IMG/VR virus record: IMGVR_UViG_3300020581_000025 | Location: 1 to 33,274 of that record | Length of the DNA: 33,274 nt | From: a virus | Direction: 5' to 3' (one strand) | Part shown: positions 2,177-4,244 of the stretch, piece by piece | Numbering within the stretch: the first letter of the stretch is position 1 | Layout: each line of letters starts with the position of its first letter | Notes under the pieces: generated by a model | Database searches by the model: none | The model's input: only the letters and a program-made list of their open reading frames with translations | What the model was told of the DNA's origin: nothing | Translations under genes and position numbers: made by a program

Positions 2177-2416
2177 GCCGCGCATTACAGCCCCCAGGAG
2201 CGACGTTTGGCACCCAATCGGACCTTTGGGACCATTTGTCGCTTGGGGGGCTGTAAAACGCGGCCAGCAGCCATTTTGACCGCTGGTCAGGTACGGAGCG
2301 GGCCAAGTGGCAGCCAGAGCCAAACCTTGCTCTCTGGACAATTGTACCCCACTTGGCCCACCATTGACAACATCTCTTGCACTATCGCTCAAGGCGCAAC
2401 TAGACTAGCTTGCGCC
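2177..2416 (-). other. Structured non-coding block with three tandem hairpins
   Basis: About 295 nt lie between the genes at 1961-2149 and 2445-2669. I see three stems. The first pairs 2177-2204 with 2238-2264 in segments of 6, 11 and 6 bp, the core being TTACAGCCCCC with GGGGGCTGTAA. The second pairs 2300-2310 with 2349-2359 (GGGCCAAGTGG, 11 bp) around an inner CCAGAG/CTCTGG stem. The third pairs 2393-2399 with 2410-2416 (GGCGCAA, 7 bp). A TTG-started ORF (2392-2153) crosses the block but lacks a ribosome-binding site. A regulatory leader, a small RNA, or remnants of stem-flanked cassettes are possible. Confidence 0.6.
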
Positions 2417-2709
2417 CCCTTGCCCCAGCATCTATATCAGCTGGTTAGCCGATGTTCTCAGCAGTGGCAAAGTACCCGTCGGGATTACTTTCAGAGCGCT
2501 CAATCCCAATGTGCTCAGCCAGTGCATTCAACCAATCGGCCAGTTCCTGCCGGGTTGAAGTCTTATTGGCCTTGCTGTCAATGGCCGCTCCGTTCTGCTC
2601 AGTTGCCAGCTTGCCCTTAGCTCGCTTGGCGAAGTATGCTTCCCTTTCTTCTAAGGTTGCAATCCTCATGTCAACTGCTCCGTAGGCTAGTTGCCCCCTG
2701 AGCGATAGT
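2381..2709 (-). repeat. Inverted repeat pair 1 flanking the 74-residue gene
   Basis: Arm 2683-2709 pairs with arm 2381-2407. Of 27 positions, 24 are Watson-Crick, one is G-U in the minus-strand RNA and two are mismatched. The gene at 2445-2669, with its ribosome-binding site, lies in the loop. The 5' arm ends just before CTACGGAGC, the ribosome-binding region. The 3' arm overlaps a local 7-bp hairpin (2393-2416), so two mutually exclusive folds exist. Confidence 0.85.
2445..2669 (-). CDS. Hypothetical 74-residue protein (stem-flanked gene 1)
   Basis: I start at ATG 2669 because CGGAGC precedes it in the form TACGGAGCAGTTGACATG, closely matching the leaders at 3299 and 3019. The longer in-frame ORF would read through the repeat arms. 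The product (MRIATLEEREAYFAKRAKGK...) is charged and probably helical, with a Glu/Arg-rich N-terminus and an amphipathic segment near ELADWLNALAEHIGIERSES. No family is recognised. It lies inside inverted repeat pair 1 and is the last of four genes in the stem chain. Confidence 0.65.
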   Translation of the reverse strand: MRIATLEEREAYFAKRAKGKLATEQNGAAIDSKANKTSTRQELADWLNALAEHIGIERSESNPDGYFATAENIG

Positions 2710-3058
2710 CGCTGTGCTCTAGGCGAAACCAGTCTTAGCTTTCGCCTTGTTCTCAGTTCGGCTTGACGTACAGGCAATATACAGCCAGTTCAGTGTCCAT
2801 CAGCAATTGGACTTCACCGTATCGCCGCTGTCTCATCCAGTAGCCCTTGAGCCACTTCTTGAGATACCGTCCGGTTTCCCAATCCACGACGAACCGCTCC
2901 CATTCCTTGCAATCCCACTTACGCTCAGAAAGGACTTTCAGGATTTCCTCTTTGGCCCTGTCCAATGGGTTCAACGGCAGCTCTGCGACTCGTCCTTCAG
3001 CCTTAACCAGGTTTGCCATGATCTTGCTCCGTGCGCTGGTTGCGCCTAGAGCACAGCG
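2710..3058 (-). repeat. Inverted repeat pair 2 flanking the 88-residue gene
   Basis: Arm 3036-3058 pairs with arm 2710-2732 at 22 of 23 positions, the first 16 being uninterrupted (CGCTGTGCTCTAGGCG). The gene at 2753-3019 lies between them. The 3' arm also takes part in a perfect local 8-bp hairpin (2721-2728 with 2740-2747, AGGCGAAA/TTTCGCCT), an alternative fold. The arm abuts pair 1 with no spare base (2709/2710). Confidence 0.9.
2753..3019 (-). CDS. Hypothetical 88-residue basic protein (stem-flanked gene 2)
   Basis: ATG 3019 is preceded by CACGGAGCAAGATC, the same leader type as its neighbours, which favours this start over one at 3106. The protein (MANLVKAEGRVAELPLNPLD...) is compact, basic and rich in Trp and Tyr. 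It has a likely helix at RAKEEILKVLSERKWDCKEW and a basic aromatic stretch RYLKKWLKGYWMRQRRYG that could bind nucleic acid or another phage protein. No family is recognised. It lies inside inverted repeat pair 2. Confidence 0.7.
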   Translation of the reverse strand: MANLVKAEGRVAELPLNPLDRAKEEILKVLSERKWDCKEWERFVVDWETGRYLKKWLKGYWMRQRRYGEVQLLMDTELAVYCLYVKPN

Positions 3059-3059
3059 T

Positions 3060-3340
3060 CCGATGGCTCTGGGCAGCACCTTGCCTGCCCTTGGGCTACT
3101 GCCCAAACATTCCCCTATTCAGTGGCCTTAGCTCCCGGATAATCCCTGCCATCATCCCGCCCAGCAGGGCATTCTGGAATACCCTGATTGCCTGCTCCTT
3201 GGGATAGGCTAACGCTGGGAACTCTCTCAGGTATGACCTGCCAGTCGGCCCAGAGATTACTCGGTACAGCCCATACAACCTTGGTTTCCTGATAGCCATG
3301 TCAATTGCTCCGTGCGGTAGATACCGCCCAGAGCCATCGG
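3060..3340 (-). repeat. Inverted repeat pair 3 flanking the 67-residue gene
   Basis: Arms 3326-3340 and 3060-3074 are perfectly complementary over 15 bp (CCGATGGCTCTGGGC). The stem extends 6 more positions (3320-3325 with 3075-3080), where all three non-Watson-Crick positions are G-U in the minus-strand RNA, giving 21 pairs. The gene at 3096-3299 lies in the loop. A 6-bp palindrome (GCGGTA-GA-TACCGC, 3314-3327) overlaps the 5' arm. Confidence 0.85.
3096..3299 (-). CDS. Hypothetical 67-residue basic protein (stem-flanked gene 3)
   Basis: ATG 3299 follows CACGGAGCAATTGAC, nearly identical to the leaders of the two genes downstream. The product (MAIRKPRLYGLYRVISGPTG...) is strongly basic. It has Gly/Arg-rich turns and a hydrophobic stretch near the C-terminus (ALLGGMMAGIIREL). 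I do not recognise it. A 6-bp hairpin (TTGGGC-TACT-GCCCAA, 3091-3106) straddles its stop codon. It lies inside inverted repeat pair 3. Confidence 0.65.
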   Translation of the reverse strand: MAIRKPRLYGLYRVISGPTGRSYLREFPALAYPKEQAIRVFQNALLGGMMAGIIRELRPLNRGMFGQ

Positions 3341-3376
3341 TGCGAATGAGCATGGGCGATACTCTGCCCGGCCACC

Positions 3377-3820
3377 CTACTGCTTGGCCTTGAGTTGGTA
3401 CACTTCCATGAGGTCATCGACCCCCAGCTTGCCACCCTGCCTTGCCGCAAGCTGCTTGATGGTATTGTACTTCAGCGCCCCATCGTGGTCCCCTGCTGCC
3501 TTGAGCTTCGAGATGTGCCCATCCAACAGCGTGGTGTTCTCCGGCGTCAGAGGCATCAGTTCAATGCGGTCTGACTTGGTCACGGCCTGCTTCCGCTCTC
3601 CAAACTGTCCCTCATGTTCCATGATGAACAGCTTGGTTTCCTCGATCACTTCGGCCTTGGTCAGCCGATCGTACTGGTCAGGATAGAGCGAAACCGGGAA
3701 GCGACCCAATCCGTAAATCACCAGCGAACCCTTCTCTCCAATCCCAATGCTAATCTTCGGGTCAGAGGTCAATGCGATCGCTTCGACTCGTGGTGTGGTC
3801 TTTACAAATGTGCTAGACAT
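3377..3820 (-). CDS. Hypothetical 147-residue protein (stem-flanked gene 4)
   Basis: ATG 3820 is preceded by GGAG embedded in the palindrome ATGGAG-TAA-CTCCAT (3819-3833). An upstream ATG at 3853 has no ribosome-binding site. The N-terminal half looks like a beta-rich small domain (ISIGIGEKGSLVIYGLGRFP, followed by VSLYPDQYDRL). The C-terminal half is helical (NTTLLDGHISKLKAAGDHDG). No family is recognised. It is the first gene of the stem-flanked series and may be the promoter-proximal gene of the operon downstream of the operator-like cluster at 4040-4087. Confidence 0.75.
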   Translation of the reverse strand: MSSTFVKTTPRVEAIALTSDPKISIGIGEKGSLVIYGLGRFPVSLYPDQYDRLTKAEVIEETKLFIMEHEGQFGERKQAVTKSDRIELMPLTPENTTLLDGHISKLKAAGDHDGALKYNTIKQLAARQGGKLGVDDLMEVYQLKAKQ

Positions 3821-3833
3821 GGAGTTACTCCAT
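3819..3833 (-). promoter_or_regulatory. Palindrome hiding the ribosome-binding site of the 147-residue gene
   Basis: ATGGAG-N3-CTCCAT forms a 6-bp stem with a 3-nt loop. It contains both the GGAG ribosome-binding site and the first two bases of the start codon. In RNA this would limit ribosome access, so translation of the first gene in the stem chain may be structure-controlled. Confidence 0.5.
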
Positions 3834-3969
3834 TGCGTGTTCCCTCTGCTCATGCTACTGGGGAAGCATCGCCCATGCCCATTCGCTATTCAGTTGTCAA
3901 GTAATGCCAGTTGTCGCGGTACTCTGAAGCACCGGGCTGCCGGACGGTGCCGACGGCGCAGTCACTTTT

Positions 3970-4039: not shown

Positions 4040-4087
4040 GTGTGTAAAATGTACACACCAAACTTACACACCGTGTAAATTCTACAC
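4040..4087. promoter_or_regulatory. Operator-like cluster of GTGTA/TACAC dyads
   Basis: Three dyads overlap in 48 bp: GTGTGTA-N5-TACACAC (4040-4058, 7-bp arms), TTACAC-N3-GTGTAA (4064-4078) and GTGTA-N5-TACAC (4073-4087). The two N5 dyads have centres 31 bp apart, about three helical turns, as expected for cooperative repressor binding. No promoter hexamers are convincing here. No candidate repressor is identified in the window. Confidence 0.6.
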
Positions 4088-4244
4088 GCCTGCCGCCGCC
4101 CGGCTACTGGCGCCCACGCGAGGCGAGGCCCAGGCTCGAGACCCGAGGCATAGACATGGCTAGGCGAGGTTTAAGCTATCGTCATCGGGGGTGGCCGAAA
4201 TGTATCATGGGACCCGCCGAATTACAGGAATTTAAAAATTCCAT

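What the first reader, a model, noticed from the sequence alone, without database searches (positions are those of the whole stretch)
2381..3886. Chain of long inverted repeats, each enclosing one small gene
Seen directly: four consecutive minus-strand genes (2445-2669, 2753-3019, 3096-3299, 3377-3820) are each flanked by a different inverted repeat. The pairs are 2381-2407/2683-2709 (24 of 27 Watson-Crick plus one G-U), 2710-2732/3036-3058 (22 of 23), 3060-3080/3320-3340 (18 of 21 plus three G-U) and 3342-3363/3865-3886 (20 of 22 plus two G-U). Each junction holds the 3' arm of one stem and the 5' arm of the next, separated by 0-1 nt. Chance cannot explain arms of this length pairing one-to-one in order. 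The G-U pairs exist only in the minus-strand RNA, which suggests selection on transcript structure. Inference: each ORF is looped out as a unit, possibly for RNase III processing into monocistronic or end-protected messages, for coordinated translation control, or as a trace of modular gene acquisition. T7 early mRNAs are cut by RNase III at intergenic hairpins, but I know of no system in which each gene sits inside its own long-range stem.
Basis: partly seen in the sequence, partly recalled or inferred. Interest (0 to 1): 0.88.

Follow-up and report, generated by a model that had tools for sequence, protein, structure and literature searches.

The report
Phage genes in rRNA-style RNA stems
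In this virus of bacteria four neighbouring small genes each sit inside their own long RNA stem, the row starts with a short sequence identical to one found at the front of bacterial ribosomal-RNA operons, and related viruses keep the pattern, so the virus appears to build and perhaps cut its messenger RNA the way bacteria handle ribosomal RNA.

Summary
All four stems lie at the stated coordinates, are far beyond chance (p about 1e-6 each), and form with probability near 1 in the folded minus-strand transcript (z = -7.4). The chain recurs in two related uncultured phages (L027, L029) and in weaker form in L231. Arms diverge with compensation: 12 of 12 units pair best with their own partner. 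Mismatches favour G-U over A-C on the transcript strand, so the structure is selected as RNA.

(1) The first arm abuts CTTGACAACTGAATAG, the boxA of rrn operons, where boxA likewise precedes the 16S/23S leader-trailer helices. Other phage contigs (L178, L199, L364, L415, L400) also put a boxA-like element before, or inside, a long stem. (2) The inner half of nearly every arm can also fold into its own hairpin, next to the ribosome-binding site or after the stop codon. (3) Some stems of this kind enclose no gene.

Best reading: an mRNA operon built like an rRNA operon. BoxA recruits Nus factors, leader-trailer helices loop out each gene, RNase III probably cuts mid-helix, and the ends refold into protective hairpins. 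The helices are well supported; boxA function is likely; cleavage is inferred.

The parts
3886..3901 (-). boxA-like element CTTGACAACTGAATAG; its last G is the first base of the first 5' arm
   Evidence: Identical 10-mer core and near-identical 15-mer at the same place in L027 and L029, while the flank further upstream is unrelated. TCTTTGACAACTGAATAG is found upstream of 16S/23S rRNA genes. Not listed as a sigma-70-like promoter.
3864..3886 (-). 5' (leader) arm of unit D; inner part can form a local hairpin (about 3860-3874)
3377..3820 (-). gene D, 147 aa; member of a widespread small phage protein family (EKGGLSVYGLGRFPVTLY motif) with no Pfam or PHROG match
3342..3364 (-). 3' (trailer) arm of unit D; local hairpin GGGCAGAGTATCGCCC at 3354-3369
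3319..3340 (-). 5' arm of unit C; local hairpin 3314-3327 just before ACGGAGC
3096..3299 (-). gene C, 67 aa, no homologue found
3060..3081 (-). 3' arm of unit C; local hairpin 3071-3090
3036..3058 (-). 5' arm of unit B; local hairpin 3033-3045
2753..3019 (-). gene B, 88 aa, no homologue found
2710..2732 (-). 3' arm of unit B; local hairpin 2721-2747
2683..2709 (-). 5' arm of unit A; local hairpin 2684-2696
2445..2669 (-). gene A, 74 aa; 40% identical homologue in L029, where it sits inside the arms that hold gene B here
2381..2407 (-). 3' arm of unit A; local hairpin 2392-2417
2300..2359 (-). gene-less stem (2300-2310/2349-2359) closing the chain; followed by GCTCCGT at 2293-2299
   Evidence: sequence read directly; same order in L027 and L029
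2177..2264 (-). second gene-less stem (2177-2195/2246-2264) before gene 1961-2149

Best explanation
The leftward operon is organised like a bacterial rRNA operon. Its transcript starts with a boxA that should bind host NusB-S10 and the Nus complex on RNA polymerase. This would keep polymerase processive through short genes and structured spacers and, as proposed for rRNA, help the two distant strands of each helix meet. Each gene is then looped out by its own 22-27 bp leader-trailer helix, with an outer half of about 11 bp whose sequence is specific to the unit so that arms do not cross-pair. Host RNase III most likely cuts the helix near its middle, releasing monocistronic messages. The inner halves then refold into a hairpin just upstream of the ribosome-binding site and one just after the stop codon, protecting both ends. 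Shown here: the helices, their compensatory divergence, the boxA-like element and its rRNA counterpart, and the alternative hairpins. Inferred: Nus binding, RNase III cutting, end protection.
For: Stems real and far above chance. Same chain in L027 (3 units) and L029 (3 units), z = -8.6 and -6.6, stems at mean pair probability 0.8-0.95. Own-partner pairing best in 12 of 12 units (-40.7 against -20.3 kcal/mol on average), 0 of 100000 permutations. Between the D-gene stems of the window and L027 at least three pairs changed on both sides and stayed paired. In a second phage group the outer arms are constant, the inner arms vary but stay complementary, 0 of 100000 permutations. Sense-strand duplex more stable than antisense in 12 of 15 units of the first group and the boxA-found cases, p = 0.002; G-U 18 versus A-C 6 over 15 units. 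BoxA: conserved at the first arm while the flank further upstream diverged; the 18-mer lies upstream of 16S/23S genes in Nitrospira, Acidobacteriota, Poribacteria and others; boxA-like elements precede the stems in L178, L199, L231 and lie inside or next to the 5' arm in L415, L364, L400, against a background of 18/1431. Local hairpins form in all 12 3' arms and 11 of 12 5' arms; the conserved G.G mismatch of the long stem is what both hairpins need. Precedent: boxA and RNase III-cut leader-trailer helices of rRNA (PMC10250234).
Against: No transcript, cleavage or Nus data exist; the host is unknown and uncultured. The strand bias is not significant in the second group (8 of 13, p = 0.59). Some stems enclose no gene, so looping out an ORF is not their only role. 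The string TTGACAACTGAATAG can also be part of a promoter elsewhere (Streptococcus Fst modules, phage tRNA arrays). Most phages with a gene-D relative lack the stems. Relatives are few and some units share ancestry, so the permutation counts overstate independence.
Confidence: 0.5

Rival explanations
1. The stems act as an RNA switch or 5'-3' clamp without cutting: each gene's leader can be either a local hairpin or paired to its own 3' end, which tunes translation or decay per gene.
For: Two mutually exclusive states are both conserved; mean energies are close (long stem -40.7 against about -34 for outer stem plus two hairpins).
Against: Neither state covers the ribosome-binding site, so the switch would have little to act on. 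Helix length of two turns and the mid-helix hairpin boundary fit RNase III better. Gene-less stems have nothing to regulate.
Confidence: 0.2
2. Antitermination and folding only: boxA plus helices keep Rho and RNases off a poorly translated, structured transcript; cutting is incidental or absent.
For: BoxA is the most constant part and, for lambda and rRNA, is tied to antitermination (PMC10250234). Gene-less stems also occur.
Against: Does not explain one helix per gene with 0-1 nt between units, nor the end hairpins on both sides of each gene.
Confidence: 0.13
3. DNA-level cassette ends: the arms are recombination or exchange borders of small gene modules, and pairing is a by-product of inverted ends or of template-switch repair.
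For: Same outer arms hold different genes or none in the second group. The arms of gene B here hold a relative of gene A in L029. Inverted repeats are templates for quasi-palindrome correction (general knowledge).
Against: Arms differ between units of one genome, unlike transposon ends. Sense-strand G-U bias and sense-strand boxA and RBS placement. No integrase or transposase seen beside the units; gaps of 0-1 nt leave no room for target duplications.
Confidence: 0.14
4. Terminators or chance: the repeats are unrelated hairpins or terminators that happen to pair.
For: One random viral ORF (L110) is flanked by terminator-like repeats.
Against: No U tracts, loops of 237-501 nt, one-to-one ordered pairing, conservation in relatives.
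Confidence: 0.02

Closest known systems
Bacterial rRNA operon: boxA and 16S/23S leader-trailer helices cut by RNase III (PMC10250234)
   Same: boxA just before the 5' strand of a long-range helix that loops out one gene product; helices in series; helix length in the functional range (17 bp or more in E. coli, 27 bp for 23S); helices diverge with compensation.
   Different: Encloses protein-coding genes of a phage; a different helix for each gene; alternative end hairpins next to the ribosome-binding site and stop codon; RNase III cutting not shown.
Lambda-type nut sites (boxA/boxB with protein N)
   Same: A phage early transcript with a boxA.
   Different: No boxB-type hairpin adjoining boxA and no N-like protein identified here; the boxA is of rRNA type; the helices have no counterpart at nut sites.
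T7 early mRNA RNase III sites
   Same: RNase III processing of a phage polycistronic mRNA (general knowledge; for the window only inferred).
   Different: T7 sites are local intergenic hairpins, not helices spanning whole genes.
Start-associated sequences / ESAS of cluster K mycobacteriophages (PMC3203893)
   Same: Repeated RBS-adjacent elements with inverted repeats at small non-structural genes.
   Different: ESAS inverted repeats are both upstream of the gene, separated mostly by 4-13 bp; no 3' arm, no boxA reported in the passages read.
Streptococcal Fst toxin-antitoxin modules
   Same: Contain TTGACAACTGAATAG and an inverted repeat around a small module.
   Different: There the string is a promoter (-35 plus spacer, with a -10) and the repeat is a pair of convergent promoters.

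Membership tests
rRNA-type boxA / leader-trailer operon | boxA sequence upstream of the leader strand | tested here: met
   CTTGACAACTGAATAG at 3901-3886; TCTTTGACAACTGAATAG upstream of 16S/23S in many bacteria
rRNA-type boxA / leader-trailer operon | long-range complementary sequences flanking the gene, 17 bp or more | tested here: met
   four helices of 22-27 positions, pair probability near 1
rRNA-type boxA / leader-trailer operon | compensatory divergence of the helix | tested here: met
rRNA-type boxA / leader-trailer operon | RNase III cleavage of the helix | not testable with these tools
   needs RNA ends or in vitro cleavage
rRNA-type boxA / leader-trailer operon | enclosed product is rRNA | tested here: not met
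   ORFs with ribosome-binding sites inside; no Rfam match in the window. So it is not an rRNA operon; it resembles one.
Lambda-type nut site | boxA next to a boxB hairpin, plus an N-like arginine-rich protein | tested here: inconclusive
   no hairpin adjoins boxA within 60 nt upstream by reading; an N-like protein was not searched for systematically
T7-type RNase III intercistronic hairpin | local hairpin between genes | tested here: not met
   arms are separated by 237-501 nt containing a gene
Cluster K SAS/ESAS | both repeats upstream of the gene with mostly 4-13 bp spacer | tested here: not met
   repeats flank the gene; definition from PMC3203893
Streptococcal Fst module | TTGACA followed by a -10 box | tested here: not met
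   no TATAAT-like hexamer at 16-18 nt after TTGACA in the window or, by eye, in L027 and L029
Transposon or insertion-sequence ends | the same terminal repeats at every copy, plus a transposase | tested here: not met
   each unit has its own arms; none of the enclosed ORFs matches a known family

The most novel reading that the evidence does not exclude
Unrelated lineages of uncultured phages run strings of small genes as mimics of ribosomal-RNA operons: a host-type boxA hijacks the rRNA Nus complex, leader-trailer helices excise each gene as a separate message, and the helices serve as exchangeable sockets into which different small genes are plugged.
Probability: 0.4. Interest if true: 0.9.

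Novelty: new variant of a known kind. Interest (0 to 1): 0.76.

Why it matters
Leader-trailer helices and rrn-type boxA are regarded as features of ribosomal RNA synthesis. If phages use the same pair of elements to produce and package individual mRNAs, it shows that this machinery can handle protein-coding RNA, gives a natural design for cutting an operon into separate, end-protected messages, and offers a marker (boxA plus ordered long-range stems) for finding such operons. It also makes an open question testable outside the ribosome: whether boxA-bound Nus factors help distant RNA strands pair.

Tried and rejected
Pattern scan for the leader motif GCTCCGTGGGN{1,3}AGTNNC was too loose: about 120 mostly random contigs, later used as a control set. 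A stricter form at the end found only L027 and L029. A first chain search with permissive scoring was swamped by GC-rich chance stems and was replaced by a stricter one and a gene-centred one. Relatives of the portal and terminase without the chain (L025, L026, L042 and others) show that the trait is patchy. Annotated phage records hold no DNA relative of the region and only a 58-residue weak match to gene D; no relative of the L415 region or of a joined query made from second-group arm sequences. Pfam, PHROGs and NCBIfam give no useful hit for the enclosed genes; Rfam gives none for the window. The Streptococcus loci L238 and L281, which also carry the boxA-like string and an inverted repeat, were rejected as relatives: they match prophage Fst toxin-antitoxin regions and the string is a promoter there. 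One script used a wrong slice for the window upstream alignment and was rerun correctly. Papers describing boxA-led, helix-enclosed phage mRNAs were looked for and not found in the open library; subscription papers are not covered.

Full report
WHAT IS THERE. The window is a fragment of an uncultured tailed phage (terminase, portal and major head protein on the plus strand); an IMG/VR contig is identical to it over 6927 bases. Four small minus-strand genes D (3377-3820), C (3096-3299), B (2753-3019) and A (2445-2669) are each enclosed by their own inverted repeat, exactly as reported. Pairing of the 100 nt before each gene with the 100 nt after it scores 53-55 where shuffles average 20-21 (p 2e-7 to 1e-6 per gene). 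In an effectively random set of viral contigs 1 of 1401 ORFs reaches 44, and that one carries terminator-like repeats. Folding the 1536-nt transcript puts all four stems in the minimum-energy structure with pair probabilities near 1; the energy is 7.4 standard deviations below dinucleotide shuffles.

RELATIVES. Two phages related through the terminase carry the same kind of chain in the same place: L027 with three units and L029 with three units, z = -8.6 and -6.6. A third relative, L231/L010, found through the portal gene, has at least one and probably two units. The arms are not the same: each unit has an outer half of about 11 bp of its own sequence and an inner half that is similar between units. 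In a matrix of 12 leader arms against 12 trailer arms, every arm pairs best with its own partner (-40.7 against -20.3 kcal/mol on average; 0 of 100000 permutations). For the D-gene stem, window against L027, three base pairs changed on both sides and stayed paired, for example G-C to C-G and A-U to G-C. Junctions and genes have been reshuffled: the outer arm CGCTGTGCTCT encloses gene B in the window but a relative of gene A in L029.

RNA OR DNA. Over 15 units, imperfect pairs are G-U 18 times and A-C 6 times on the sense strand. The sense duplex is more stable than the antisense duplex in 12 of 15 units of the window-type and boxA-found cases (p = 0.002), but only 8 of 13 in a second group (p = 0.59). 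So RNA-level selection is supported for the window group and not shown for the second.

A SECOND STATE. The long stem of many units has a G.G mismatch at one place. The reason becomes clear when each arm is folded alone: the inner half of the leader arm forms a hairpin immediately before the ribosome-binding site (for example GGGGAT-ACT-ATCCC), and the inner half of the trailer arm forms a hairpin after the stop codon (GGGC-AGAGTATC-GCCC, GGCGAAA..TTTCGCC, GGCGCAA..TTGCGCC, GGGGG..CCCCC). Hairpins form in 12 of 12 trailer arms and 11 of 12 leader arms, with changing but complementary stems. The mismatched Gs are the bases the two hairpins need. The hairpins begin or end at the border between outer and inner halves, about one helical turn from the outer end of the long stem. 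The two states exclude each other.

BOXA. In the window, L027 and L029 the first leader arm is immediately preceded by [C/T]TTGACAACTGAATA. The 10 core bases are identical in all three, while the flank further upstream is unrelated. The 18-mer TCTTTGACAACTGAATAG was searched in one genome per species: many hits lie in rRNA operons. A simple pattern places 31 of 123 before a 16S start and 10 before a 23S start, with 12 more cut by contig ends. Rfam confirms a 23S start within about 250 and 150 nt in a Terriglobia and another acidobacterial genome. This is the rrn boxA. In rRNA operons boxA stands just before the leader strand of the 16S and 23S leader-trailer helices, which are cut by RNase III, and boxA-bound Nus factors are proposed to promote formation of that helix (PMC10250234). 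No TATAAT-like box follows TTGACA at promoter distance in the window.

HOW WIDE. Phage loci found only through a gene-D relative, without use of boxA, also show a boxA-like element upstream of an enclosing stem: L178 (TGCTCTTTGACAATG), L199 (TGTTTGACAAT) and L231 (CTTGACAAC); the background is 18 of 1431 ORF starts. A boxA search of viral contigs added L415, where boxA is part of the leader arm, an 87-aa ORF is enclosed and the trailer is followed within about 10 nt by another boxA-like sequence; L364, where boxA is part of a 34-nt arm enclosing a 121-aa ORF; and L400, where a 28-nt arm pair overlapping the end of boxA encloses about 260 nt without a gene of the usual kind. In the group of L173/L178/L199 the outer arms GGGATTGCAT/TGCAATCCC are constant, the inner arms vary completely but remain complementary (0 of 100000 permutations), and the stem holds different small ORFs in some phages and no evident ORF in others. 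The element is therefore an RNA structure with a socket, not merely a gene wrapper. Gene-less stems also close the chain in the window (2300-2359, 2177-2264).

MECHANISM. Most likely the operon is made and processed like pre-rRNA. BoxA loads the Nus complex; leader-trailer helices form as the trailer is transcribed; RNase III cuts near the middle of the two-turn helix; the inner halves refold into end hairpins, leaving each gene as a separate message with a protected 5' end, an open ribosome-binding site and a protected 3' end. Helices and their conservation: shown. BoxA identity by sequence and position: shown; its function: likely (about 0.65). RNase III cutting: inferred (about 0.55). End protection: inferred (about 0.45). 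Rivals are a switch without cutting, an antitermination device without cutting, and DNA-level cassette borders.

KNOWN OR NEW. Every component is known from rRNA operons; I found no report of a protein-coding operon in which each gene has its own leader-trailer helix behind an rrn-type boxA (open-access library only). It fails membership in the rRNA operon family (products are proteins), in T7-type local hairpins, in cluster K ESAS, in Fst modules and in transposon ends, so it is filed as a new variant of the leader-trailer kind.

LIMITS.

Noticed in passing
window 2293-2299 (minus strand GCTCCGT); L027 around 1177; L029 around 3967: GCTCCGT, the reverse complement of the conserved ribosome-binding site ACGGAGC, occurs exactly once on the minus strand of each searched operon region, right after the gene-less stem that closes the chain. 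It could be a cis or trans antisense to the ribosome-binding sites.
   Followed up: partly
L416-L431 (GGGATTGCAT...TGCAATCCCGCACGATTAA): A constant outer stem acts as a socket holding different small ORFs or none in related phages, about 100 nt downstream of a boxA-like GCTGTTTGA element.
   Followed up: partly
gene D 3377-3820 and about 40 relatives in L166-L226: Widespread 80-150 aa phage protein with the motif K[VI]SEKGGLSVYGLGRFPVTLYxEQWxKLL and no match in Pfam or PHROGs; function unknown.
   Followed up: partly
L233, L246, L286 and other Firmicutes loci: A boxA-like TCTTTGACAACTGAATAG element lies about 150-200 nt upstream of an Rfam pemK RNA (RF02913) in several Firmicutes.
   Followed up: no
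L289 874-980 (minus strand): The 18-mer stands directly upstream of a large tRNA array in a Bryobacterales contig.
   Followed up: no
window 4040-4090, L027 about 2690-2760: Repeated GTGTAAAATTTACACGGTGTG-like palindromes upstream of the operon; possible operator or promoter region.
   Followed up: no
L042 8627-8684 and 9209-9230; L027 about 2670-2690; L035 7711-7934: TTGAAAACAAAGGACTTA motif recurs in direct and inverted copies upstream of the leftward operon in several relatives.
   Followed up: no
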